From Syncephalis plumigaleata (lineage: Eukaryota; Zoopagomycota; Zoopagomycetes; Zoopagales; Piptocephalidaceae), in contig JAIXMF010000007.1 in assembly GCA_025201365.1 (NCBI GenBank), forward strand, positions 928,477 through 992,476: a DNA stretch of 64,000 nucleotides, in the 5' to 3' direction. Within the stretch, counting starts at the first letter, position 1, and every line of letters starts with the position of its first letter. Positions 42,013-63,835 of the stretch are shown one piece after another. The notes under the pieces were generated by a model. It ran no database searches. It saw only the letters and a list, made by a program, of their open reading frames with translations, and was not told where the DNA came from. The translations under genes and the position numbers were made by a program.

Positions 42013-45086
<3,074 letters not shown>

Positions 45087-45187
45087 AATAATAATAATTA
45101 TAGTAAAATAGCGATAATAAATAAACTAAGAAAAAAAAGAAAAAAGTTGACGAAGCATTCTCTCGTTCTTATAATTCACTTTCAACC

Positions 45188-46379
45188 ATGTTACGTACAT
45201 TATCCTCGAAATTCACTGCACCTAGTCTATTGGGCACACGAGCATTACGCCCAAGTATTGTGCAGCAACCGTTCTATCGCGTAGCAACACTACCAACCAC
45301 TACCATAGCACGTCGTGCTTATACTGTAGACCCGCAATCGAGTAAAGCACGCGCTAAAACACTTATTGGAGTAGGTAGCATCATATCATTGATATCTCAA
45401 GTAGTAGTAATAGCAGCAGCATCATGTACTGACCACTTGTTAGATATTCAATTGGAAATCATCTGCGTTGTTTGTCCTTACGGGTGCCGGTCTATTCTGG
45501 TATTTCCGAAATGAAAAAGCTAAAGTTGAACAAGCACGTAAGTTATTCAGACCAGTTAAAAAGTCTTATAATACAATTGTATTAATATGTAATGACAAAC
45601 AATTCATGTATTAGGCAAAGAACAATTTGCTACGAAAAGCTACGGCAAACCAAAGCTAGGTGGTCCATTTGAGCTTATTGATCATCATGGCAACGTACGC
45701 ACTGATCGTGATTTCCTGGGCAAGTTCATGCTAGTCTACTTTGGATTCACGCATTGTCCCGATATTTGTCCCGAGGAATTGGATAAAATGGCTGAGGTTG
45801 TCGATGAACTAGGTGGGTTATTCATTCCTACATTGATATACTAGTCAGTATCAAGTGTTTATTTAGCTAAATAATGCTTGTATAGATAAAGTGCCGGAAT
45901 TCAAGGATAAAATAATTCCCGTGTTTATTACATGTGATCCACAACGAGATACCGTTGAACGTGTACGCGATTATGTTAAAGGTACGCTATCCATAGGATA
46001 TGTCTAGTAGTTTATCGTTTATTTCTAGATACTAACTGAGCGATTAGAATTCCATTCGAAAATGGTGGGATTAACGGGTACTCATGAACAAGTGGCGCAA
46101 GCAGCTCGTGCCTATCGTGTTTACTATAGTAAGCCACCTAAAATGGACGCAGGTGAAGATTATCTCGTAGACCATTCGATCTTCTTCTACCTGATGGATC
46201 CACACGGTCAACTAGCCGACTTTTATGGCAAGGATTACTCGGCGGAATACGTGACGAATAGCGTTCAACAATATATACGCGACTATCTAGCAACTACTGG
46301 TGGAGAGTGGCCTACTATAACTACACCATCGACTGCATCTTCTAGTGAGGATGTGATGACAACTACGACAACAAAATAA
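45188..46379 (+). CDS. SCO1: Sco1-type cytochrome c oxidase copper chaperone
   Basis: Five exons: 45188-45370, 45444-45537, 45615-45812, 45886-45981, 46048-46379; 903 nt, 300 aa, in frame. It delivers copper to the CuA site of Cox2 in the mitochondrial inner membrane. The N-terminus (MLRTLSSKF...RVATLP...RRAYTVDPQ) is a presequence, followed by one TM segment ([16 protein letters not shown]). The thioredoxin-like domain has [25 protein letters not shown] with the CxxxC copper ligands, [10 protein letters not shown], and [14 protein letters not shown] with the conserved histidine. The last about 30 residues are Thr/Ser-rich. It is divergent from the helicase, which starts only about 100 bp upstream. 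Confidence 0.96.
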
Positions 46380-46496
46380 TAAAATGACAAATAATTGACT
46401 TTCCGAATTTATCCGATTTATCCCGATTCGCGCATATCACGCGTTTCGTGTATAGAATTGAAGAGGTTGAGCACAGACACAGACACAGCGGAAAAG

Positions 46497-46516
46497 CAAG
46501 AGAGAGAGAGAGAGAG
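46497..46516. repeat. (AG)n microsatellite between SCO1 and fumarase
   Basis: AGAGAGAGAGAGAGAGAG run in the about 270-bp spacer that serves as 3' flank of SCO1 and promoter of fumarase. Confidence 0.9.
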
Positions 46517-46646
46517 AAGGAAAGTGCTAATCACCCTCACACGACGCGGGGAACTTTCCTTCTTTTTTCTCGCTTTCTCTACTTCTACTTCTTCTGCTTC
46601 TATTATTATTACTTGTTATTTACTACGCTTTTAAGCGAATACTAAA

Positions 46647-49168
<2,522 letters not shown>

Positions 49169-50100
49169 TTTATTGTTTAAACGATAAGCAATCCTATGAT
49201 TTTGCTAATTTCTTCTTGAATAAATTACAGCAAGATTAAGAGAATAATGAGAGAATAATGAAATGTAACAATAGAATACTATTAAGAAAGGAGTAGAATC
49301 CACGTCATAACTAGATGTCATGCAATGGGAGTAGCAAGTATGAAGGACAATAATATTTCTAGACAATAGCGTAGATTCAAAATAACGAGTTGTTGGAATT
49401 CAATTATATTTGAATTGATGCATAACAGCTTCATTACATAAATGTAATAAAATCGGACTTTCCTTCTTTCAATACAAGGACATCAACATGCTAATACTAA
49501 AATAGTGGTAGATTAGCCATTTGTCAGTGCATAAACTATTTTATTTGCAATAAATCTGTCCAATATCAGTTTGTATTATGCATAGCTAGTAATCATTCAT
49601 ATTTCCATGCTAGTTTATTGCTACTGTAAGTACATGGCAATATCCAACTATACTAGTACACTTGTATCGTTTACCTTATAGAATTGATATGAGGTTCTTG
49701 ACATGTGTCTGATGTTTTACTGCTCTACAGGTCATTAAATTGTAATAGCGTGATAGTCCATCTATTATAAGATATTATGGAATGTATCGGTTGCAAATGC
49801 TTGATACATATCTTTATTTATATTGATATGTGTTTAGGTTAATTTGCCATCATAGTATCATTTAAATAATGCTTGCCATGATATTTGATCATCACTCATT
49901 CCATTCTGCATTGCTCGTTTCTCTATCAAAGCATTTCAATACAAATGACAATGTTACATAATATAGTGTATATATATACACTAGTTATTTGGCTTCATCT
50001 ATTGTTTATTAATCCAAGGCATTGTTCCATTGGCGATATATAGTCTACCTATTGCTGCTTCTATTATTGTTCAGCAATATGTTAAACTCAGTTTAGAAAC
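49169..50100. other. Intergenic region with a fragment of the Fanzor-carrying element
   Basis: About 930 bp with no gene. It includes a short copy of the interior of elements B/C (next entry). Near 49395-49420 it contains sequence similar to the 3' flank of the right-hand secreted gene (59920-59940), so the similarity between the two palindrome-edge genes reaches into their 3' flanks. Confidence 0.55.
49626..49688. mobile_element. Internal fragment of the element B/C family
   Basis: The GTAAGTACATGGCAATATCC...TTACCTTATAGAATTGAT stretch matches 39960-40028 of element C with few differences. No TIR is present on either side, so this is a fossil piece. Confidence 0.75.
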
Positions 50101-50678
50101 TCAAGCCACTGGCCGTTGCAATTGCGCTAATTGCAGTCGCAGTGTGTTGCTAGTTTTTTGCCGTGACTCATACGTCTGCTGTAGAGACGGTAATTCTAGT
50201 TCCATTTTGTTTAATAGTATGTTTTCCGTGATTGTTAGTGTCCGCTGGGGGGCTTGCTTCAGTTCATCTATTTTCCGTTTACATTGGGTTATTCTCTCTT
50301 CCACTCGCGATAACCCTTGTTCCATTAGCACTAGTATCTGTCGCAACTCGGGTACATTGATTTATTGAGTGCAGGTTCTAGTCTTGTTATACTCTTCTGT
50401 AGCTTTGATTCCTGGTCCATGCATCTTGTTCCAGTTTTCTTTCCGCTAATATCCGATCCAGTCCGCTGGTGTCACTTGGGATGTGGGTGGCTGGTTCTTT
50501 ATCAGTCCTGGCTTGATGCTCGTTTTAGGCCTCCTATCTGCCCTGCTTGCAGCTGTGGCTGCCCTGTCCGCCAGTTAGAGACTGGGAACCAGGGGTGAAT
50601 GCATAGGAGCAGCATGGCACAGCCAAGGATGGCCAAGACTACGATGGCGGTGAACGATAATGACCGGAAGGAGACCAT
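50101..50678 (-). pseudogene. Secreted coiled-coil protein, left paralogue at the palindrome edge (frame-disrupted)
   Basis: On the minus strand, ATG at 50678 opens MVSFRSLSFTAIVVLAILGC, a signal peptide. The downstream body is helical and charged, ending in RQILVLMEQGLSRVEERITQ to LRLQLAQLQRPVA (stop at 50101). Compared with the right-hand copy, at least four single bases are missing in the first 220 bp (near 50613, 50571, 50512, 50460), breaking the frame. From ATG to the codons for MEQG the nucleotide sequence is otherwise the same as the right copy; beyond that the two proteins are only about 40 percent similar by eye. The function is unknown; the small secreted helical type is seen among fungal effector-like or cell-surface proteins, which is speculation. 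Confidence 0.5.
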
Positions 50679-52297
50679 GTTGTTGTATAGAACTGTCGAT
50701 AATCCGTTAGAGCAAGTTTAAACGTTACTTGAAAGAAGAGCGATAGGTGAAGGTGTGGTCGTTGCAGTCGTTGTAGATGAGTGTAGAATATCGAATAAAG
50801 CCACAAATAATACGCTGCTTTTATGTTCGAGATGAGATTGCTATTCGGTGTTAACCACTTACACAACATCTTCATATTCATTGGGGTACATGTTTTCAAT
50901 AACCATAGTATCCTCTTTTCTCTTTCTACTAACCATGAATTCTTATTGTATCAATATGTGTGGAACCAATGTGCGTCATAAGAAACCACGTTCCTAATCT
51001 AATAAGGGAATTAAACAATGTACATTAGTAAAGGGCGAATCAATGTTTCTTAATTTAGCACCATGCTGTAACCATGATAACTGCGACAGCAACAGAGCGT
51101 TATGCGGAGTAAGCGAGGCGGCAAAGTTGGAAAAACTATCTCGTTTGTATGGTTGGCCATGCTGTCACATTATGTCGTGTATCCTTTTTAAGGATAAATT
51201 GATGAAACATATTGTGTTTCCACTAGCTCTATGCTTGTTTCCTTCCTTTCAACGACCTCCAAACTGCTAATAGAGAGAGCGGTTATCATGCTGCTTACAC
51301 CCCGTAGTATTGCTAAACACCGTCTACTTGACTGAATCAACCATGCTTACAATCTATAGACAAATCTACAGTAGCTATCGGTAACATTCAAGAGTGCTTT
51401 ATTATGAATAGCGCCAATCGTTATTGTATATTAATTATGATATTTGTGAGTGTACTATTCATTTGCATGAGATTTGCTCATATACTTGTTGTTTTATATT
51501 GATTTCTTTATCGATGGATAGAGTGTTCAATGCTAAATAAGCGATTATATTACATCAAATGAATGGAATAGTTGTCAGTCATGCTATTACAGATATTCGC
51601 ATACTCCATAAGCAGCTGACTGTATTCAATAAACAGTTAAGACCGTGCATTTATTCAATAAACTATGATAATAATGCTTACGGTTAATTGCATAGATAGC
51701 AACGAGTGAACAAATAGAATACACGATAAACAATGTAATAAACAAGCAGTAACTAGTAGAATGACTGACTTGTCACGAACGAGCAAGGAAGGAGCGAGGA
51801 AGAGTACATGAACACGTATGTCAGTTTATTTGGAGAAGCAGCGTATGCTTGTAGGTAAATAGAGTATGTAGATGGCAGTAAACAAATAAAATACAAATAA
51901 CAGCATGACGTAAGGGTGGCATACAAACAGATGACGGAAAGAGTGGTAAAAGTAAAAGGTACATATTACAACGAGAGCAGTGAACGCTTAAACATTGATA
52001 AATAAGCAGGCAGTGATGGAAAACAAAGACTAGAACGAACAATAAACAATGCTTATTGGTATAATAACAATAACGACAAATGAGCATGTAGATAGTTTAG
52101 AGCAAGAGGAAAACAGAGAGATAAATAAAAGTCATAGAGATAGTATGACAGAATAGCTGCTATTGGGAATGTGTATGCTAAAATGAAAGAGAAAGTAAGT
52201 GGAATGCGAATGACACGAAGAAGACGCGTATTACTAAGAAAGTAAACAGAAGAGAAAGAAACAACTAGCATATAATTGAGATGAAGTAGACGCGTGT

Positions 52298-52485
52298 TGT
52301 TTAATGACAAGTGGAATGTAGTTGACATAAAAAAGGCACTTACTGTTTAGTGGTGGTAAGGGAAATGACAAGGAAATGAGGTTGGCACGAATAAGACAGT
52401 ACGTGAAAGAAGTCAACGACAAGTGGAAGGTAGTCAAGGCTAAGAATATGTGTATTGTTTAATGACAAGTGGAATGTAATTGACA
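52298..52485. repeat. Degenerate tandem units within the left arm
   Basis: The phrase TTTAATGACAAGTGGAATGTA followed by a TTGACA-like stretch recurs at about 52299 and 52458, with a weaker copy at 52418 (ACGACAAGTGGAAGGTAGTC). In the right arm the mirror copies lie at about 57436-57622. The small open frames covering them share the peptide pattern TTFHLSL and are not called as genes. Confidence 0.6.
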
Positions 52486-52791
52486 CAAAGAAAACAACAT
52501 TGGTAAAGAAGTAAAGGAGAAGGAAAGGAAGAGGGAAACAACAATGAAATGGATACTTAGAAATGGATTAGTAGATCGTTAATGCTGTTAACGAATGTGC
52601 AAAATTGTAATGTGGTCCTTCAGACTACAAGAACATAGAATCTAACTAGTTTGCTGTTATCGTTTTCTTTTATTACTTAATCGAAAAATAAAGCTATAAA
52701 ATCTTTCTCCCCTATAAAAAGGAGCTACATCTGTCATGTATATGTTGATTCCTTGATCATCTCGTAACAAAAATGGTGGATGGAAGAAGGA

Positions 52792-52810
52792 TGTAAGACG
52801 TTACACACTA
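52792..52810 (+). mobile_element. LTR-end-like sequence, left arm
   Basis: TGTAAGACGTTACACACTA occurs here, at 55474-55492 in the spacer, and inverted at 57113-57131 in the right arm. In each case weaker similarity continues for about 150 bp (GTCTTACG, AAGAGAAAGGT). TG-start, recurrence and context suggest ends of related solo or truncated LTRs; the opposite ends were not located. Confidence 0.45.
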
Positions 52811-53727
52811 GGAAGGAAGGAATAGAGGGATGAAGCGATAAGTGAGGTCTTACGTAGAACGAGATCGCGAGAGAACCTTATGACACAAACTACACGAACT
52901 CAAATAATAAAGCAAGTTACGAATAGTCAGAAGTGTCAAGAGAAAGGTCATATATGGTTATTGATATGTGTAACGTCGTTAGTTTATATACGCAACATCC
53001 GCCGCTCTATGGACGTAGCAGAGCTACGTTCTCTATATCAAAAGAGACTTCTCCAGTGAGAAGTGCTTAATCGGTAGGAGGGAGTGATGTTGAGTAAGAT
53101 GAATATAGCAACGTTAGTGGTGTTAAGGATAGCGTTAATGATTATTTGTCTAAAGAAATATACAGAGTACAGTATGCTTTTCCATTTTCCTTTTCATTTA
53201 ACCGAAATAGTAATAAAGTAAATCTTAAAACTATAAATAAAAGTGCCACCGTGTCATGCAAATAAACCTTATCCTGCTTTCGCGGTTTCTTTATGGGTGG
53301 GTAATAGAGGCTGGGTAACTCTATACTCTGTATATTTCTTTAGACAAATAATTATAGTATGGGTGGTGACGCCGATGACGACACTAGCTATTATTTTCAT
53401 TCACAATAAGTTTTCCTTGAAATTGCTCAAGTCCGTCGGATTTTACGAGCATGTACCTATATAGTGCTGTAATCATCCTTTCATTCTTTTAAACGAAAAT
53501 AAAACCGTCTTAAACTTCTAGAAAGTTCTTAGCGCTCTATTATAAGAGTGCGTAAGGACGGTGTACTGAACTAATGCTCTTTGATCATGATTGAGCCGGT
53601 CATGGGAGGGATGAGGTAGGAAGTTATATAGGTACATGCTCGTTTAGTCCTCTGGACTAAACTACAAGTATCATCATGATCGTCAATGAATTGAGTGAGA
53701 GGCGTCACAGAAGAGTTTGGGTTCTAT

Positions 53728-53819
53728 GTTATTGGAGTCTGATGGGCTACATACAATCTTCTGAAAATATATATTTATATATCGGCAGAAAATTCTAAAG
53801 TCCATCAGACTCCAATAAC
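53728..53819. repeat. 18-bp foldback (hairpin) at the inner edge of the spacer
   Basis: GTTATTGGAGTCTGATGG (53728-53745) is the exact reverse complement of 53802-53819, with a 56-bp AT-rich loop. The right half is part of the copia RNase H coding fragment (codes for MLLESDG on the minus strand), so the left half is an inverted duplicate of coding sequence, not an ancient hairpin. Confidence 0.85.
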
Positions 53820-53884
53820 ATTGATTCTTTTGCCGCTTCGGTCGTCGCCATGTATTCGGCTTCGGTCGAGGATAGCGCAACTGG
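53802..53884 (-). pseudogene. Ty1/copia-type RNase H fragment
   Basis: The minus strand reads PVALSSTEAEYMATTEAAKE, the classic ALSSTEAEYMA block of copia RNase H, then SMLLESDG before the frame is lost at the foldback. No RT or integrase motif is next to it, so this is a small remnant. Confidence 0.85.
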
Positions 53885-53966
53885 GCTCCACAAAGATCTT
53901 GAAATAATCCGTTTTGAATAGATTCCTATACTGCACACGCAAATAAACTATTCAAACGGAACTTAC

Positions 53967-54164
53967 CTTTTGATTATATTTAACGTGCTTCATAGAAGCT
54001 TTTATACGTAGGTGTGTGCTCAGTTGACGTGAGCGAGTGCCTCCTTGTTTGTTCACATACGATTTCGCCGTTGTGTTGTCGGTTCGTATCAGAATCGTCG
54101 TATTCGATATCTGTGTTAGAAATTTCAGCACTAATTCGATTGCTTTCAGTTCTCTCCAGTTGAT
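53967..54164 (-). pseudogene. DIRS-type RNase H fragment, C-terminal half
   Basis: The minus strand reads INWRELKAIELVLKFL, then ILIRTDNTTAKSYVNKQGGT with RS following. The RTDNTTA-x-x-YVNKQGGTRS block is diagnostic of RNase H in DIRS-like (tyrosine recombinase) retroelements. Its N-terminal half is at 55270-55362; the two are separated by the LTR/gag remnant. Confidence 0.75.
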
Positions 54165-54208
54165 TGTAACGCCGTATCCTGGTCCGTTAGGATACTCGTT
54201 ACTCCTCC
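54165..54208 (-). mobile_element. Truncated LTR end fused to gag
   Basis: TGTAACGCCGTATCCTGGTC and the following 24 bp repeat almost exactly (one difference) at 54773-54816. On the minus strand it ends in ...GGCGTTACA and abuts the DIRS fragment. The gag reading frame terminates inside it, so all of pol and most of the 3' LTR have been deleted. Confidence 0.7.
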
Positions 54209-54690
54209 TTCAGTAACATCGCTCTGGCTCTGGCGTACGTGTCTGATGCCTTCTTGTTGAATTCGCGTTGATACTTGGGCTGCATGGCTTGCTCAAGCAA
54301 TAGAAGCTTGATATCCTCGTCCTTGATGTTGCCTCGGTCGAATAGGTTGTCCAACGTCATCAGGAGCTCCTCGATCGTCTCGGATTCCTTCTGTCGGTAG
54401 GTGAGGGCCATACGTCGAGCCTTCTTCTGATAGTCCTTTGTGATGAACCGATCACGGAAAGTCTTCTCGAAGTCCGACCATTGCGCCCATTCCGATGCCT
54501 GGTTGCGAAACCAGGCATCAGCGACGCGGGTAAGCAGGCACCGACGATGTTCAGGCTAACTTCGTCAGTCCATTGGTTGATGCGTTTACTACGCTCAAAC
54601 GTCTCGAGCCAGTGGATGGGGTCCTCGTCCTTGGTTCCTCCGAAGACCTCGGGGCGGGCGAGCCATCCAACCGCTGGGTTCATGTCGTAA
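54199..54690 (-). pseudogene. Ty3/gypsy-type gag remnant
   Basis: Minus-strand pieces in two frames give MNPAVGWLARPEVFGGTKDE, then DPIHWLETFERSKRINQW, and after a frame change AQWSDFEKTFRDRF, RQKESETIEELLMTLDNLF and ARARAMLLKEE. The WL..FE / F..F..RF / R.Q...E.I..Y/L pattern is the retrotransposon gag domain. A primer-binding-like TGGCGCTCCCGGGTGGGC lies just upstream on the minus strand (54768-54751), next to the LTR end at 54773. No pol follows. Confidence 0.8.
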
Positions 54691-54772
54691 GTATAAAGAT
54701 AATGTAAAAAGGGGGTATAGGGGGGTGTGTCGCACTAACGCTTTCTCGTGGCCCACCCGGGAGCGCCAAAAC

Positions 54773-55269
54773 TGTAACGCCGTATCCTGGTCCCTTAGGA
54801 TACTCGTTACTCCTCCACCAGTCACTCGGGGAGGGAACACAATAGAACTAGAACAGGGCCACTCGAAGAGTGCACACAGAGACTCGTAGGTAAAGATGGA
54901 TAAGTAATACTTTATTTAAGGTTGGTTACGGCTTTTATTTATAGAGCGTTCTCGTTAGTTTCATAAGAAGATAAGAAAATAAAAGATAAAAATAAAAGAG
55001 CAAAGATTCTTCGATTAGAATCTGGTGTTGTAATTTGTTTTTCGTGCGCGTGGCGACCATGGGAAGCCGTGCATTTTCTACTGAATATATGTTGAGCAAT
55101 TTAGCGAGATAGAAATAAGATAAGAATAAGAAATAGTCCTTGCTATAAGAGGACACTAATATGGGTAATAAGAATTAGCGAAAGTTCGTAGGGACTCCGC
55201 AAGATGTCGTTAGCGATAGATCGTGAAATGGCGTCAGAGGAACCCGCGTAGCTAAAGGTACCACGATCG
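54773..55269 (-). mobile_element. Probable 5' LTR of the gag remnant
   Basis: Between the primer-binding-like site and the N-terminal DIRS fragment lie about 500 bp without coding potential. The 3' end (minus strand) is CGTTACA and its last 44 bp recur at 54165-54208. I could not fix the 5' end: the junction with the DIRS fragment shares AATC with the other side, compatible with a short target duplication. Confidence 0.5.
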
Positions 55270-55362
55270 GATTTCATGATCGACTGATCGGCTTTGATGA
55301 GTCCACAGTCCTTGTATCGTTTTGTTGCAATACACGCCACTCCATCCTATGTCGCTGGCGTT
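55270..55362 (-). pseudogene. DIRS-type RNase H fragment, N-terminal half
   Basis: The minus strand reads NASDIGWSGVYCNKTIQGLW, then THQSRSVDHEI, where the sequence is interrupted. The DAS-x-x-GW-x-G-V...QG-x-W block is the beginning of DIRS RNase H. The continuation INWRELKAI is found about 1.1 kb away on the same strand. Confidence 0.7.
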
Positions 55363-55473
55363 CACGTGTACCGTATGCGTTGATACTGATGTAACGAAAG
55401 ATCGTCCATTCCATTTGCTGAGATTGTCCCTCCACCATTTCAGTTCCTGTTTCTTCGGCGAAAAATAGGACGG

Positions 55474-55492
55474 TGTAAGACGTTACACACTA
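55474..55492 (+). mobile_element. LTR-end-like sequence in the spacer
   Basis: Same TGTAAGACGTTACACACTA start as in the two arms, again followed by related but diverged sequence to about 55640. It indicates that a relative of the arm-borne LTR also sits in the spacer. Confidence 0.45.
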
Positions 55493-55864
55493 AAAGGGTA
55501 AAAATAGAAAGATTGGCGCGAGGAGTATCGTCTTACGAATACGGGTCGCAAGCACAAACATGCATGTTATCACCACAAACACAAATAAAGAAAGTTCAAT
55601 AGTCAATACGCGTTAAGAGAAAGGTTATCTATTTTACTATAGCTGTGTTAAGAAGGCAAGTTTACATACTCGTCTTCTGGTATACTCGCTAGCTGTAGCG
55701 GAGTTAGTTGTGTATTCAAGGCAACTCCTGCGCAAGGGAGTGCAAAATAGGGAAGCATGTATTTACAGTGCGAATAAGAATGATAATAATAATAAGAGTA
55801 TCGATGGTGACGGCGATGATGATACTCATCACTATTATCATTGTTACAACCAGTATCTTGTTTG

Positions 55865-56188
55865 TTAGGCTGAAAAAGGGATGGTAGAAAAGGATTGAGT
55901 AATGAGGGAAAGTGTTTTGTTGAAGTGTATACGAAAATCGTCGTGTACAACCGAGTGTACCCCCTTGTTATTGGTTAGACGTATCCAAGCTGTGTAGAAC
56001 TTGTGTAGGCGATCACCTACTGGTTGTTCTGTGGGTGATGGCCGTTGTTGTTGTTGTTGTTTGCAGCGTGATAGGGTCTCGGCGGCTGTTGTTATGACCG
56101 TGAAAGTTCCCTCTCCTGTTTCGATGCTGATTGTTGATCCGTCGATGTGAATATTGGAACTCATCCTCTGCCTGTGATGGGCCTGCAC
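55865..56188 (-). CDS. Unassigned open reading frame in the spacer
   Basis: A 107-codon frame (or from an internal Met, MSSNIHIDGSTISIETGEGT) with VITTAAETLSRC, a polyGln run and LHKFYTAWIRLTNNKG. It lacks recognisable retroelement or cellular motifs. Position next to retroelement debris makes a transposon origin possible. Not supported as a real gene beyond its open frame. Confidence 0.25.
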   Translation of the reverse strand: MQAHHRQRMSSNIHIDGSTISIETGEGTFTVITTAAETLSRCKQQQQQRPSPTEQPVGDRLHKFYTAWIRLTNNKGVHSVVHDDFRIHFNKTLSLITQSFSTIPFSA

Positions 56189-56255
56189 GAAATAACTGTG
56201 ACTTGTGTGTCAATTTACGCGGCTTTGCTTCCATGACTGCCTTTTGTCAATGAAA

Positions 56256-59200
56256 TTGTAGTTTAGTCCAGAGGACTAAACGAGCATGTACCTATATAAC
56301 TTCCTACCTCATCCCTCCCATGACCGGCTCAATCATGATCAAAGAGCATTAGTTCAGTACACCGTCCTTACGCACTCTTATAATAGAGCGCTAAGAACTT
56401 TCTAGAAGTTTAAGACGGTTTTATTTTCGTTTAAAAGAATGAAAGGATGATTACAGCACTATATAGGTACATGCTCGTAAAATCCGACGGACTTGAGCAA
56501 TTTCAAGGAAAACTTATTGTGAATGAAAATAATAGCTAGTGTCGTCATCGGCGTCACCACCCATACTATAATTATTTGTCTAAAGAAATATACAGAGTAT
56601 AGAGTTACCCAGCCTCTATTACCCACCCATAAAGAAACCGCGAAAGCAGGATAAGGTTTATTTGCATGACACGGTGGCACTTTTATTTATAGTTTTAAGA
56701 TTTACTTTATTACTATTTCGGTTAAATGAAAAGGAAAATGGAAAAGCATACTGTACTCTGTATATTTCTTTAGACAAATAATCATTAACGCTATCCTTAA
56801 CACCACTAACGTTGCTATATTCATCTTACTCAACATCACTCCCTCCTACCGATTAAGCACTTCTCACTGGAGAAGTCTCTTTTGATATAGAGAACGTAGC
56901 TCTGCTACGTCCATAGAGCGGCGGATGTTGCGTATATAAACTAACGACGTTACACATATCAATAACCATATATGACCTTTCTCTTGACACTTCTGACTAT
57001 TCGTAACTTGCTTTATTATTTGAGTTCGTGTAGTTTGTGTCATAAGGTTCTCTCGCGATCTCGTTCTACGTAAGACCTCACTTATCGCTTCATCCCTCTA
57101 TTCCTTCCTTCCTAGTGTGTAACGTCTTACATCCTTCTTCCATCCACCATTTTTGTTACGAGATGATCAAGGAATCAACATATACATGACAGATGTAGCT
57201 CCTTTTTATAGGGGAGAAAGATTTTATAGCTTTATTTTTCGATTAAGTAATAAAAGAAAACGATAACAGCAAACTAGTTAGATTCTATGTTCTTGTAGTC
57301 TGAAGGACCACATTACAATTTTGCACATTCGTTAACAGCATTAACGATCTACTAATCCATTTCTAAGTATCCATTTCATTGTTGTTTCCCTCTTCCTTTC
57401 CTTCTCCTTTACTTCTTTACCAATGTTGTTTTCTTTGTGTCAATTACATTCCACTTGTCATTAAACAATACACATATTCTTAGCCTTGACTACCTTCCAC
57501 TTGTCGTTGACTTCTTTCACGTACTGTCTTATTCGTGCCAACCTCATTTCCTTGTCATTTCCCTTACCACCACTAAACAGTAAGTGCCTTTTTTATGTCA
57601 ACTACATTCCACTTGTCATTAAACAACACGCGTCTACTTCATCTCAATTATATGCTAGTTGTTTCTTTCTCTTCTGTTTACTTTCTTAGTAATACGCGTC
57701 TTCTTCGTGTCATTCGCATTCCACTTACTTTCTCTTTCATTTTAGCATACACATTCCCAATAGCAGCTATTCTGTCATACTATCTCTATGACTTTTATTT
57801 ATCTCTCTGTTTTCCTCTTGCTCTAAACTATCTACATGCTCATTTGTCGTTATTGTTATTATACCAATAAGCATTGTTTATTGTTCGTTCTAGTCTTTTG
57901 TTTTCCATCACTGCCCTGCTTATTTATCAATGTTTAAGCGTTCACTGCTCTCGTTGTAATATGTACCTTTTACTTTTACCACTCTTTTCCGTCATCTGTT
58001 TGTATGCCACCCTTACGTCATGCTGTTATTTGTATTTTCATTTGTTTACTGCCATCTACATACTCTATTTACCTACAAGCATACGCTGCTTCTCCAAATA
58101 AACTGACATACGTGTTCATGTACTCTTCCTCGCTCCTTCCTTGCTCGTTCGTGACAAGTCAGTCATTCTACTAGTTACTGCTTGTTTATTACATTGTTTA
58201 TCGTGTATTCTATTTGTTCACTCGTTGCTATCTATGCAATTAACCGTAAGCATTATTATCATAGTTTATTGAATAAATGCACGGTCTTAACTGTTTATTG
58301 AATACAGTCAGCTGCTTATGGAGTATGCGAATATCTGTAATAGCATGACTGACAACTATTCCATTCATTTGATGTAATATAATCGCTTATTTAGCATTGA
58401 ACACTCTATCCATCGATAAAGAAATCAATATAAAACAACAAGTATATGAGCAAATCTCATGCAAATGAATAGTACACTCACAAATATCATAATTAATATA
58501 CAATAACGATTGGCGCTATTCATAATAAAGCACTCTTGAATGTTACGCGATAGCTACTGTAGATTTGTCTATAGATTGTAAGCATGGTTGATTCAGTCAA
58601 GTAGACGGTGTTTAGCAATACTACGGGGGTGTAAGCAGCATGATAACCGCTCTCTCTATTAGCAGTTTGGAGGTCGTTGAAAGGAAGGAAACAAGCATAG
58701 AGCTAGTGGAAACACAATATGTTTCATCAATTTATCCTTAAAAAGGATACACGACATAATGTGACAGCATGGCCAACCATACAAACGAGATAGTTTTTCC
58801 AACTTTGCCGCCTCGCTTACTCCGCATAACGCTCTGTTGCTGTCGCAGTTATCATGGTTACAGCATGGTGCTAAATTTAAGAAACGATTGATTCGCTCCT
58901 TTACTAATGTTACATTGTTTAATTCCCTTATTAGATTAGGAACGTGGTTTCTTATGACGCACATTGGTTCCACACGTATTGATACAATAAGAACTTCATG
59001 GTTAGTAGAAAGAGAAAAGAGGATACTATGGTTATTGAAAACATGTACCCCAATGAATACTGAAGATGTTGTGTAAGTGGTTAACACGCGAATAGCAATC
59101 TCATCTCGAACATAAAAGCAGCGTATTATTTGTGGCTTTATTCGATATTCTACACTCATCTACAACGACTGCAACGACCACACCTTCACCTATCGCTCTT

Positions 59201-59630
59201 CTTTCAAGTAACGTTTAAACTTGCTCTAACGGATTATCGACAGTTCTATACAACAACATGGTCTCCTTCCGGTCATTATCGTTCACCGCCATCGTAGTCT
59301 TGGCCATCCTTGGCTGTGCCAGTGCTGCTCCTATGCATTCACCCCTGGTTCCCAGTCTCTAACTGGCGGACAGGGCAGCCCACAGCTGCAAGCAGGGCAG
59401 ATAGGAGGCCTAAAACGAGCATCAAGCCAGGGACTGATAAAGAACCAGCCACCCACATCCCAAGTGACACCAGCGGACCTGGATCGGATATTAGCGGAAA
59501 GAAAACTGGAACAAGATGGCATGGACCAGGAATCAAAGCTACAGGAAGAGATAATAACAAGACTAGAACCTGCACTCAATAAATTCAATGTACCCGAGTT
59601 GCGACAGATACTAGTGCTAATGGAACAAGG
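56256..59630. repeat. Right arm of a large inverted repeat
   Basis: Reverse complement of 50315-53667, slightly longer (3375 against 3353 bp) because the left arm lacks many single bases. The inner end is TTGTAGTTTAG at 56256; the outer end is within the right secreted gene at 59630. The spacer between arms is 2588 bp (53668-56255). The LTR-end-like sequence at 57113-57131 is the mirror of 52792-52810. Confidence 0.93.
58659..59159 (-). CDS. Unassigned Cys-rich reading frame in the right arm
   Basis: A 166-codon frame starting MSVEYRIKPQIIRCFYVRDE, with a Cys-rich part (LAPCCNHDNCDSNRALCG, YGWPCCHIMSC). It is transcribed away from the secreted gene, whose ATG lies 99 bp from this start. In the left arm (50784-51270) the same sequence is broken by several one-base gaps and only 75 codons remain open. 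No family recognised. Being open in one arm and broken in the other gives no evidence of selection. Confidence 0.25.
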   Translation of the reverse strand: MSVEYRIKPQIIRCFYVRDEIAIRVLTTYTTSSVFIGVHVFNNHSILFSLSTNHEVLIVSIRVEPMCVIRNHVPNLIRELNNVTLVKERINRFLNLAPCCNHDNCDSNRALCGVSEAAKLEKLSRLYGWPCCHIMSCILFKDKLMKHIVFPLALCLFPSFQRPPNC

Positions 59631-59877
59631 TTCATCGCGAATGGAGCAGAAAATAGCCGAACGACGAAAGATAATAAGGCAACTAAAACCAATCCCCGAG
59701 CAGACACGAACAACTCAACAGAAAATAATATTAATCCAAATGGAAAATGGATTATTGCATCTACAAAAGGAATATGATGAATGGAAACCGCTAATCGCCG
59801 GACTGAAAGAAACATTCGCGAAATTGGGACAACTACAGCAACGATCTAATACCCGATCTACGCCAACAGCTGATTAA
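59258..59877 (+). CDS. Secreted coiled-coil protein, right paralogue at the palindrome edge
   Basis: ATG at 59258 opens MVSFRSLSFTAIVVLAILGC followed by ASAAPMHSP, a signal peptide with an Ala-x-Ala type cleavage site. In the next frame a long helical, charged body follows: QSLTGGQGSPQLQAGQIGG, then TPADLDRILAERKLEQDG, LQEEIITRLEPALNKFNVPE, LRQILVLMEQGSSRMEQKIA and on to a stop at 59877. One frame change between about 59305 and 59360 is needed to join leader and body. The heptad-like pattern suggests a coiled coil; no known domain is seen. The left paralogue (50101-50678) has the same leader and diverges after MEQG. Confidence 0.55.
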
Positions 59878-60155
59878 GCCACCGTTTTGGATCTCTAAAC
59901 TGAGTTTAATAATATAATTCAAATAGAATTGAATCTACTAATAATAAAAGACTATTGTCATAATATTGCACAATGAAGTGGAGACATGTAAGACACATTA
60001 GAGCTGATCATTTGACTATCATTCTACAGAATAATATATCGGTGCTAACGAATATGCAAATTTATTTATTAATAAAGACAAAAGTAAAGGCTAAGAGTGT
60101 TGATCAGTTGGGAGAACATTGTAATTAGATAGAATAAACAGTGACTGCGATAACA
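59878..60155. other. Convergent intergenic spacer
   Basis: About 280 bp between the 3' ends of the right secreted gene and BRF1. The first part resembles the 3' flank of the left secreted gene (TCTAAACTGAGTTTAA shared). Nothing else is seen. Confidence 0.5.
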
Positions 60156-62539
60156 TTAGTCATAGTCATTATACTCGTCGTAGCCGTAAGCATGCATATC
60201 ATCATTGCCATACTCCTCCTCGTCATCATCATCGTCATCATATTCCTCCTCTTCTTCTTCCTCCTCTGCTGCTGCTTCAGTCGTTGTTGCTGTTGTTGTA
60301 GTTGCTGTCGTATTCGTTGTTTGTGCAAGTGCCTCATTCTTGATCTGTAGCTCACTACTATTCGTATTATCCTGCGATGGTTTACCACTTTCCGGCGATG
60401 CTACCGATGAAGAATTATTTGACATGTCCGATTTAACTGGTTCAACTCCTGGTTCCTCAACAATCTCATATTTAATGGGTGACATTGCAGCAGCAGCTTC
60501 CTCCTCTTTCTCAGTAGCTGTCGGCTCATCGTCGAATAATGCATCGATGACCGCGTAATTAATTTTACGTGAGAACTTTTTGGTAAACAACATTTTCTTG
60601 GCTGATTCTGCCGCCGAGCGCGATGATTCATCCACCGGTACATCACCACGTCGTCGTCTCTATATACATAGATAATAATAATAGTAGTAGTAATGTAAGT
60701 AATACTATTGTGACAAGTATGTGAATTGTTTGTACTACCTTACGAGAAGGACGTGGTGCAAACTTTTCTCCTGCTGCTTCGCGTTTCTCGCGTTCTACAC
60801 TCATCCATCATATATGATCATCAGTATACACGTTGAATATTGATACAATCAAATAAACAAAGTAGGAACTCACCCGCCATTTTCTCAATATAATCTCGAT
60901 TGTTCTCCTCCCATAACTCTGTTTTCATGACCACTTCATCTTGTGTTAGGAATACTTGCTCAATCTCGTCGTCATCAATATCTGTCCAATTCTCGACATT
61001 CTCATCAACTAAATAATATAGGTGTACATATTAGTAATGCCGGTGTCATCAATCATTACATATCTGCGTATGCTCTGTTACTTACCTTTCTCCATTTCCG
61101 GTTGTTTCGGTGTTGATCCATTCATTGACATGAGTGCGGTGGCTGCCTCTTTCAATAGTGCCTGTGCTGAACTATCTGTTTCCGTGTTGGTCACCTCCGC
61201 TATCAAGGGCTTCATTCTCATTTTGCCCACAATGAATGCCGGTGGATCGTAGGATTCCTCAAGGAACATTGACTGGAAATCAGCCATGGTCAGCTTGCTT
61301 GATGGCGTGGCCATGAACTCTTCCATACTAATTGACAAATGAATGATCGCTTACAATTAGCATGTCTAATCGGCTACAATAATACAAATGAGCAATTACC
61401 GTCGTTTTAGAGTGGCATCACCAATCTTAACTACTCGCATTACTTCGGCACTTGTTCGACGGAAATTATGCATTCTAGCTGCAATCAATAGGCCTAAATG
61501 ATTGTTTACATCGTCAGTACGAGTGGTAAACTATATGAGACCATTAAATAATCTTACATGCACCGCATATACCAGCTGGCCGTCGACCCGTTTGAATCCA
61601 ATCTCGATTCATACGCTGTACTAGACGTAAAGCATCCGATGCCACTACAGGTGTAGCATCGCCAAACTCCAACATTGCCGCAAAACGATGTATATAAATC
61701 GATGGATCGACCAATGGCAAGCGTAGACTTAGTTCCTTTACTAGTTTCAAAAATGTATTACCCAGTGCAAATACATTGATCTATAGTATTATTAGCGTTG
61801 CTACATTCCTTGTCAAATCAATGCTATATGTCAATCCTACCTGAAGTACATCCGAGAAATCAATCAACATATGACTAGTACGTTCCATACGACAAGCAAT
61901 GTATAGACAGGCTGCAGCCACACTTTGAGTCGTACGACCACGCGTAAAGTTATACGCTAATGCCAAGTTAAAGTATCTCTGTGCAGCATCAACGTATCGT
62001 TCCGATATGCGTAATGCGGTAGCCAATGCCTGGATACGACGTCGACCTAATAAACACGAGTCATCAAGACTAATTGTAAGTAGAGTTGTTACATGGATTA
62101 TATCACAAAGCATGAGCATGAACATGCACGCTACTTCTTACCATTAGCCATACTCTGCTCCTTTGACTCCATCGTTGTTTGTCGTCTATTTAAACCGAAA
62201 GACATGGCACGTCCTATATCGATATATTGATTGATTTCAATTAACTTTTCCATTTATCATGCTTATGTCATATCTTTCTCTTTTACCTTGGTTGGCACCA
62301 ATGTAGGAGCCCATTAAGACGGCAGCACCATTGGATTTCTCTCCAAATTCAACCTCTTTTGATAAGGCATTTTCCTCAAACACCTACAATAACAATATAG
62401 GAGATACTCATCGTGTAAGTGAATCAAGAATGCCCGCTTATTTATCTTTATAACATACCACACCGCATTGCACACAGAATGCATTGCCTTGAACGTCATC
62501 ATGCTCGAACGTATTGCCGCCGCAACCTTGGCACGGCAT
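60156..62539 (-). CDS. BRF1: TFIIIB subunit Brf1
   Basis: Ten minus-strand exons (62539-62459, 62383-62287, 62213-62142, 62046-61841, 61780-61558, 61493-61400, 61327-61086, 61008-60874, 60794-60739, 60659-60156) sum to 1710 nt, 569 aa, in frame. Brf1 recruits RNA polymerase III to tRNA and 5S genes. It shows a zinc ribbon (CQGCGGNTFEHDD, AFCVQCGVV), VEFGEKSNGAAVLMGSYIG, and two cyclin repeats (RRRIQALATALRISERYVDA, TQSVAAACLYIACRMERTSH; LVKELSLRLPLVDPSIYIHR, RRPAGICGACLLIAARMHNF). A Brf1-specific C-terminal block follows (VDENVENWTDIDDDEIEQVF, KINYAVIDALFDDE). The tail is Thr/Glu-rich and ends in an unusual acidic, Tyr-containing run ([18 protein letters not shown]). Confidence 0.96.
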
Positions 62540-62747
62540 GACCTACTAGTAATACTAAGAGAATGAACGGGTATCAAGGATAGTGTTGTAATTATTAGAA
62601 ATAAAAAAAACGATATTTGGTTAGTAAAGGAAAAAAAATAATATCTATCAATTACTTAATATTTTCCTCTTTATTCAACTAGCAAAAACTATGCTCTTCA
62701 TTCTTTAACAACAACTTACAGTATTTACTAATTACTATTACAACAAC
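62540..62747. promoter_or_regulatory. Short divergent promoter (BRF1 / ATRIP-like)
   Basis: 208 bp separate the start codons of two divergent genes, so both promoters and 5' UTRs must fit here. Poly(dA) tracts at 62603-62638 could help exclude nucleosomes. Confidence 0.6.
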
Positions 62748-63835
62748 ATGGATGTAGAACAGGTGTCAACAACGAATACTACAGAAAGTGCAGCCTGTTT
62801 GGTTACTGCTTCAATTAATTCGGATGACATGAACGAGAATGACGACTATTTCGACGACGACGATACACTAGACTTTGATGCTATGGCTAGTGCATTGGAA
62901 ATAACAGAACAGAACTTTTTATCGCAACAACAGCATCAATATCAGCATCAACAACAACAACAACAACAAGATCATCATCAGCAACAAGATGACGTGTCTA
63001 CATTAAATAACTACGAGAGAATCATGGATACCTATAATGATGAAATGGCACCCACTCAAGTAGGATGTTAATTATCGTAGATTAGACATATCCATTAACA
63101 ATCATTAATGCTTATTAGACATTACGTATTCCTATGACACAACCAGGTCCCAATCCATTAGAGATTAATATTCTACAGAAAGATGGTGAAATATCGATAT
63201 TACGTCAAAAATTACAACAGGTAAATAGACATATGACATATAACATAATTACTTACTTATATGAATGACTAGACGATGGATCAACTGGCCGGTCTACAAC
63301 AGGAGATGATGATGATTAAGGAGACTACGCAACAGGAGCGACAACAACGAGAACGGGAATTTTATCGAGAGAAAAGTGGATTAGAAGCACAATTACAATT
63401 TGCCGTAAGTTATTCGATCTATAGATTAGTAGAGTATTTTATTAATGATAAATGTTTTACATGTGTATATATGTGTGTATACGTATAATATAGAAATTGG
63501 AGCAGAATGCTCAATCAATGGATAGCAAATCATTACCGCGTCATGTCAATGAGATACGATCTAATCTGCATGAGTTTCATTCAGTATATCGAAAGGAACC
63601 TCCATTGAATGCACCATCCACTATTATGGCCATGGCTCATACTACTACTGATACTGCTGCTAATACTGCTAATACTAATACTATTGAGGCAGATGAACAT
63701 TGTGTACAACCAGTAGCCTCATCATTACTGCCGTCATCTCCTACTTCTCCTACTTCTTCTCCTTTAGCAGATCATCCGAATATGACACCGTATCGACAAT
63801 GTTGGCGTCATTTCCAGTCACTTAAATATTTGTAA
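62748..63835 (+). CDS. ATRIP/Rad26/Ddc2-like checkpoint protein, N-terminal part or short form
   Basis: Four exons: 62748-63059, 63119-63220, 63273-63404, 63494-63835; 888 nt, 295 aa in frame. After an acidic start (DDYFDDDDTLDFDAMASALE) and His/Gln repeats comes a coiled coil: LQKDGEISILRQKLQQTMDQ, then REREFYREKSGLEAQLQFAK. The GEI-x-ILR ... E-x-x-LQFAK pattern is characteristic of the ATRIP/Rad26 coiled coil that binds the ATR kinase. ATRIP homologues are usually longer, so the stop at 63833-63835 is suspicious. A further intron (63830-63895) could add only a few codons before another stop. Either the gene is short here, a base error truncates it, or the family call is wrong. Confidence 0.55.

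What the first reader, a model, noticed from the sequence alone, without database searches (positions are those of the whole stretch)
50101..59877. Near-10-kb palindrome whose two edges fall inside paralogous secreted-protein genes
Arms of about 3.4 kb are near-identical inverted copies around a 2.6-kb spacer. The outer identity stops inside the coding region of a secreted coiled-coil gene on each side. Beyond that point both genes continue as recognisable but diverged paralogues, down to similar 3' flanks. A simple assembly duplication would not leave homologous-but-different sequence outside. The pattern fits an inverted paralogue pair homogenised by gene conversion, with conversion ending mid-gene, so that a common leader is joined to two different C-termini.
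Basis: partly seen in the sequence, partly recalled or inferred. Interest (0 to 1): 0.75.

Follow-up and report, generated by a model that had tools for sequence, protein, structure and literature searches.

The report
Self-copying palindrome with a flipped centre
A near-10-kb DNA palindrome in a fungal-type genome has mirror-image arms that appear to copy themselves onto each other, and in a second version of the same locus its centre is turned round; other palindromes sharing one dispersed repeat show the same pattern, so this looks like a real recombination feature rather than an assembly mistake.

Summary
Observation confirmed. Arms 50315-53667 and 56256-59630 flank a 2,588-bp spacer; the inner 1,648 bp are identical; identity ends inside two diverged copies of a small secreted coiled-coil gene. 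Contig C277, a second version of the locus, supports gene conversion. Outside the arms, sites follow locus (206 sites); inside, they follow contig (72 sites; none crossed). The conversion edge differs by about 240 bp between contigs, and the C277 spacer is inverted. Two further loci repeat this signature; another does in part. A pair with arms about 70% alike is not inverted. All five carry the end of a dispersed repeat, T; neighbouring T ends within 6 kb are 12 inverted, 0 direct. In the gene family, the promoter-plus-leader segment seems exchanged between loci while C-termini stay locus-specific. Corrections: all four palindrome gene copies are broken as assembled; the left arm holds 17 private short deletions that look like consensus errors. 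The mechanism is known (yeast flip/flop, mammalian palindromes). No reads were available, and contigs that escape collapse are biased towards rearranged loci.

The parts
50101..50314 (-). 3' end of the left secreted-protein gene copy, outside the arm; diverged from its right-hand counterpart
   Evidence: 73% to the right-hand counterpart over 50168-50363; sites group left with left between contigs
50315..53667 (+). left palindrome arm
   Evidence: outer edge inside the gene
50101..50678 (-). left copy of the secreted coiled-coil gene (start near 50678), frame broken as assembled
   Evidence: three-frame translation
50366..52027 (+). stretch of the left arm with 17 private 1-3 base deletions, probably consensus errors
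   Evidence: the other three arms have these bases
51611..52583 (+). left copy of dispersed repeat T (about 975 bp)
   Evidence: its outer-end motif has 96 matches in the genome, control 0
53668..56255 (.). spacer, inverted in contig C277 (98.2% identical when reversed, 41% in the same direction)
   Evidence: two full-length matches listed in the genome
54202..54555 (-). weak retrotransposon gag-like remnant in the spacer
   Evidence: PF03732, E 0.00054, 20.6 bits, below the cut-off of 24.1
56256..59630 (-). right palindrome arm
57340..58316 (-). right copy of dispersed repeat T
59258..59877 (+). right copy of the secreted coiled-coil gene, frame broken as assembled
   Evidence: its open coiled-coil stretch is ORF 59464-59877, which has no Pfam match

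Best explanation
The window holds an inverted pair of secreted-gene loci whose facing 3.35-kb parts form a palindrome. The arms pair with each other. Most events resolve as arm-to-arm gene conversion, which keeps the arms alike within one chromosome copy and ends at variable points inside the genes. Some resolve as crossovers, which invert the spacer. Paired copies of dispersed repeat T are the probable substrate, because other inverted T pairs show the same behaviour and the one compared pair with diverged arms does not. Shown at sequence level: near-identical arms, the flank and arm site patterns, the shifted conversion edge, the inverted spacer, recurrence at other loci, and shared 5' modules between loci. 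Inferred: that C351 and C277 are alleles, that homologous recombination is the agent, and that T is causal rather than a passenger.
For: Window and C277, four-arm alignment: 206 flank-type sites, all at or before 50396; 72 sites grouping arms by contig, 50373-53433; 0 crossed. Of 46 sites private to C277's left copy, 45 lie at 50322-50553, so the edge differs between contigs. Spacer inverted. Locus 2 (C46:324931-329190 / C228:535-4797): 26 flank-type, 53 contig-type, 8 crossed just inside; the whole cassette matches reversed; right flank collinear at 98% over 1482 bp. Locus 3 (C46:127527-131875 / C50:16850-21198): outer 87 flank-type against 1 contig-type, arms 46 contig-type against 1 flank-type, spacer 413 crossed. 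Locus 4 (C318:1502504-1507005 / C339:19988-24488): interior matches only reversed, left flank collinear over 1566 columns. C24/C324, arms 68.7% and 72.7% alike: not inverted. T ends within 6 kb: 12 inverted, 0 direct.
Against: No reads. The loci were seen because a second contig escaped collapse, which favours rearranged or diverged loci; control region 43000-47000 has no second copy. Allelism is inferred from flank identity. Locus 2 is not a plain flip: its cassette is only 89% alike between contigs while the right flank is 98%, the C46 arms are only 90% alike, and 66 sites are private to one C46 arm. At locus 4 the right flanks did not match in the stretches fetched. C277's left inner arm is broken by a 663-bp insertion beside a small inverted piece. 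Two flank-type sites (50365, 50396) lie just inside the window arm and one in the locus 3 arm. One diverged-arm pair is a thin control.
Confidence: 0.8

Rival explanations
1. Assembly artefact: the assembler mirrored one arm or set the spacer orientation at random.
For: The left arm has 17 private short deletions in 50366-52027, so part of it is poorly supported. No reads are held. The palindrome ends about 4.4 kb from the end of contig C351.
Against: A separate contig carries both arms and both flanks. The private deletions show that the left arm was not simply copied from the right. The contigs differ at 72 arm sites yet agree within a contig. Loci 2 and 3 have arms of only about 0.97 and 1.36 kb, short for an assembly with a 3.0-Mb contig, which I take to be from long reads (inference). 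The outer gene ends are diverged.
Confidence: 0.12
2. Recent inverted duplication that arose separately in each chromosome copy, without conversion.
For: It would also give arms that match by contig.
Against: Left and right genes continue outside the arms as old paralogues in both contigs (206 flank-type sites), so two loci existed before. The edge moved by about 240 bp between contigs.
Confidence: 0.04
3. The arms are simply two insertions of one transposon in opposite directions; T is its terminal repeat.
For: T is dispersed (96 end motifs) and stands as inverted ends around gene cassettes at C46 and C228.
Against: Insertion alone does not make arms match by contig or invert spacers between contigs. 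No target-site duplication was recognised by eye at C46. The arms extend beyond T. It could explain how the pair was seeded, so it is compatible with the best explanation.
Confidence: 0.25
4. The shared 5' part of the gene family reflects purifying selection on promoter and leader, not conversion.
For: A secretion leader can be conserved, and 5 of 11 close copies are open as assembled.
Against: C71 and C351b, taken as alleles, differ at 42 sites in the 5' module and 1 in the C-terminal part. C329:804k and C329:895k, different loci, are identical over -600 to -300, while C329:895k and C378 differ there by 7.1% though nearly identical in the C-terminal part. Selection alone does not give that.
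Confidence: 0.06

Closest known systems
Saccharomyces chromosome XIV flip/flop region (PMC9731477; abstract and section list seen)
   Same: An almost identical inverted repeat made of genes, homogenised, with the interior found in both orientations.
   Different: One 24-kb region with 4-kb repeats and 15 genes, conserved across a genus. Here several small palindromes share a dispersed repeat, the arm edge falls mid-gene, and orientation differs between contigs of one assembly.
Human Y palindrome P6 (PMC3723533; abstract and section list seen)
   Same: Arm-to-arm gene conversion in long tracts with occasional inversions.
   Different: Sex-chromosome palindrome studied in 378 chromosomes; here two contigs of one genome, with diverged paralogues directly outside the arms.
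C. elegans long inverted repeats of divergent and convergent gene pairs (PMC1803023; abstract and section list seen)
   Same: Homologous gene pairs in near-perfect inverted repeats that seem actively maintained.
   Different: Those repeats take in gene pairs and complete intergenic sequence; the abstract does not mention inversion between haplotypes.
Repeat-rich genome and secreted gene families of Batrachochytrium (PMC9926174; passages seen)
   Same: Secreted gene families in repeat-rich, gene-sparse regions of a chytrid.
   Different: 'Gene conversion' and 'inverted' do not occur in its main text. Gene conversion in Batrachochytrium as such is treated in other papers, seen only in a listing (PMC7017293, PMC8607637, PMC2680619).

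Membership tests
Palindrome maintained by arm-to-arm gene conversion | Near-identical inverted arms with a unique spacer | tested here: met
Palindrome maintained by arm-to-arm gene conversion | Arms more alike within a chromosome copy than to their counterparts on the other copy | tested here: met
   72 contig-type and 0 crossed sites; 2 flank-type sites inside the arm, near its edge
Palindrome maintained by arm-to-arm gene conversion | Conversion seen directly or in read data | not testable with these tools
   no reads held
Flip/flop inversion between inverted repeats | Interior found in both orientations between collinear flanks | tested here: met
   window/C277, C46/C228, C46/C50; C318/C339 with the left flank only
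Flip/flop inversion between inverted repeats | Repeated re-inversion across strains or species | not tested
   no other isolate was compared
Terminal-inverted-repeat DNA transposon (for T) | Inverted ends around a unit, dispersed copies | tested here: met
   C46 and C228 cassettes; 96 end-motif hits
Terminal-inverted-repeat DNA transposon (for T) | Target-site duplication | tested here: inconclusive
   none recognised by eye at C46; the T boundary is not exact
Terminal-inverted-repeat DNA transposon (for T) | Transposase, own or related | not tested
   the five ORFs of loci 3 and 4 searched gave no transposase family; no systematic search was made

The most novel reading that the evidence does not exclude
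Repeat T makes a genome-wide set of small recombination cassettes. Paired inverted T copies keep flipping their interiors and homogenising their arms, and the exchange spreads one promoter-plus-leader module over many secreted genes while each locus keeps its own C-terminal coiled coil: a way to vary secreted proteins behind a common secretion front.
Probability: 0.3. Interest if true: 0.75.

Novelty: new member of a known kind. Interest (0 to 1): 0.5.

Why it matters
It turns a suspected assembly oddity into a testable class: small palindromes sharing one dispersed repeat, where conversion and inversion can be read by comparing two versions of a locus. It also gives a concrete route, exchange of the 5' module, for leader sharing in a secreted gene family. 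Assemblies of such genomes should be checked for inverted alternative contigs and for consensus error in palindrome arms.

Tried and rejected
Organism: not established. 51 M36-peptidase matches suggest Batrachochytrium or a near relative; the passages of three papers that I read describe no assembly of this size and contig number. C318:184527-190745 palindrome (arms 2.27 kb, 98.7%): neither its spacer nor its right flank gave a second full-length copy, so no orientation test. C381 palindrome (arms at least 1520 bp, 100%): a relative of its spacer at C351:706360 (89%) was not compared further. C249 pair (arms 78.6%) and the C1 and C335 pairs: second versions not sought. Pfam on spacer and palindrome ORFs gave a weak gag and a ricin-B-like hit, both below cut-off, and a Mad3/BUB1 domain; the one open coiled-coil stretch searched had none. 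Gene family: of 16 copies (two more rows are fragments of listed copies), 11 close ones went into; 5 distant ones (67-76%; C57, C38, three on C113) were left out. Papers: among the titles and abstract starts listed (8 of 8; 1 of 1; 10 of 34; 10 of 515; 12 of 33; 12 of 12), I saw none that reports this for a chytrid; most subscription papers are not held. T-pair orientation: eight distinct loci after merging allelic contigs, all inverted, would be 1 in 256 on a coin model (my arithmetic); the direct pair at 6.1 kb appears at the 10-kb limit (13 to 1), and at 20 kb it is 16 to 4.

Full report
What is there. The window is the right end of contig C351 (992,476 bp) in a 32.6-Mb, 383-contig genome. 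Two arms, 50315-53667 and 56256-59630, are inverted copies around a 2588-bp spacer. The inner 1648 bp are identical. At each outer edge the arm stops inside a gene for a small secreted coiled-coil protein; the genes start near 50678 (minus) and 59258 (plus) and run outward. Beyond the edge they are 73% alike.

Technical caution. The left copy has 19 private 1-3 base deletions, 17 of them in 50366-52027, where the other three arms have the bases. That looks like uncorrected sequencing error. It also shows that the left arm was not simply copied from the right by the assembler. All four palindrome gene copies are frame-broken as assembled. Of the 11 close copies in the genome, 5 are open (C71, C329:804k, C351:638k, C378, C46) and 6 broken.

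A second version of the locus. Contig C277 (14,273 bp) aligns to window 49782-63406; the right flank is 98.5% identical over 3815 columns. A control stretch, 43000-47000, has no second copy, so the assembly is mostly collapsed there. In a four-arm alignment 206 sites group left with left and right with right; all lie at or before 50396. 72 sites, 50373-53433, group the two arms of one contig against the two of the other; none is crossed. 73 sites are private to one copy and 9 have three or more letters. Of 46 private to C277's left copy, 45 lie in 50322-50553 where the other three agree: the conversion edge reaches about 240 bp further into the left gene in the window. The spacer is inverted: 98.2% identical reversed, 41% in the same direction. 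Arms differ more between contigs than the right flank does: 92 mismatches in 3254 columns for the right arm, 31 in 3815 for the flank. C277 also has 663 bp inserted at the inner end of its left arm, next to a small inverted piece of arm.

Recurrence. The arms contain a repeat, T, of about 975 bp. A 32-base motif from its outer end has 96 matches in the genome and none for the reversed control. Neighbouring T ends within 6 kb are 12 inverted and 0 direct, from eight distinct loci if allelic contigs are merged; at 10 kb 13 to 1, at 20 kb 16 to 4. Besides the window I compared four inverted T pairs with a second contig. C46/C228: cassette reversed, left flank of about 90 bp and right flank of 1482 bp collinear; 26 flank-type, 53 contig-type, 8 crossed sites, with 66 private to a C46 arm. 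The C228 arms are identical over 919 bp, the C46 arms only 90% alike, and the cassette is 89% alike between contigs against 98% for the flank: something besides a flip, perhaps replacement from another locus, has happened there. C46/C50: outer 87 flank-type and 1 contig-type; arms 46 contig-type and 1 flank-type; spacer 413 crossed. C318/C339: interior matches only reversed, left flank collinear, right flank not matched in the stretches fetched. C24/C324: arms 68.7 and 72.7% alike, interior not inverted. So arms 90-100% alike go with inversion at 3 of 3 loci with both flanks tested, the window included, and in part at a fourth; the one pair with diverged arms is not inverted. Because these loci were found through contigs that escaped collapse, this is not a rate.

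The gene family. Eleven of 16 copies were compared. Over 50 pairs classed as different loci, with left and right window copies counted apart, mean divergence is 7.0% in -830 to 0, 6.9% in 0 to 200, 35.3% in 200 to 620 and 23.7% in 620 to 740. C71 and C351b differ at 42 sites in the 5' module and 1 in 200-620. C329:804k and C329:895k are identical over -600 to -300, while C329:895k and C378, identical over 420-620, differ there by 7.1%; these two stop matching about 1 kb past the gene start, so their allelism is less sure. Of 168 differences between paired contigs in the 5' module at four loci, 92 have both variants at other loci (19 of 32, 31 of 42, 19 of 38, 23 of 56); in 200-620 it is 12 of 46.

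How it likely works. Facing arms pair. Non-crossover repair copies one arm onto the other and can end mid-gene; crossover flips the spacer. T supplies or seeds the homology. The first two steps fit the site patterns; the agent and the role of T are inferred. At this locus the broken genes make a present function of the encoded proteins doubtful.

Known relatives. The yeast chromosome XIV flip/flop region has the same logic of homogenised inverted genes and a reversible interior (PMC9731477, abstract and section list). Human palindrome P6 shows conversion with rare inversion (PMC3723533, abstract). C. elegans has maintained inverted gene pairs (PMC1803023, abstract). The mechanism is therefore known; recurrence around one dispersed repeat and the mid-gene edge are what this case adds. 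None of the titles and abstract starts listed reports it for a chytrid; those lists were capped.

Noticed in passing
window 50366-52027: 17 private 1-3 base deletions in the left arm only: probable consensus error.
   Followed up: partly
C318:1495951-1513555 (L063, L068, L069, L072, L073): A palindrome of about 17.6 kb with a T-end pair placed symmetrically near its outer ends. The 2.7 kb of arm read is 99.9% alike in C318 (98.9% in C339), the outer 0.55 kb 95.3%. A Mad3/BUB1 region 1 ORF (PF08311) reaches into the left arm, and the spacer holds a ricin-B-like ORF below cut-off.
   Followed up: partly
C381:4720-5780 and relatives: Relatives of this spacer sit in plus/minus pairs roughly 6-10 kb apart on C157, C111, C290, C72, C373, C24, C383 and C324: perhaps a second family with long inverted ends.
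   Followed up: no
C318:184527-190745 (L037, L042, L043): Another T palindrome, arms 2.27 kb at 98.7%, in which no copy of the secreted gene was seen and for which no second version was found.
   Followed up: partly
C277:3747-4409 (L009): 663-bp insertion inside the inner left arm; a 231-codon open frame over it has no Pfam match.
   Followed up: partly
whole genome: 51 M36-peptidase matches on many contigs; two pairs of top matches have equal scores on different contigs.
   Followed up: no
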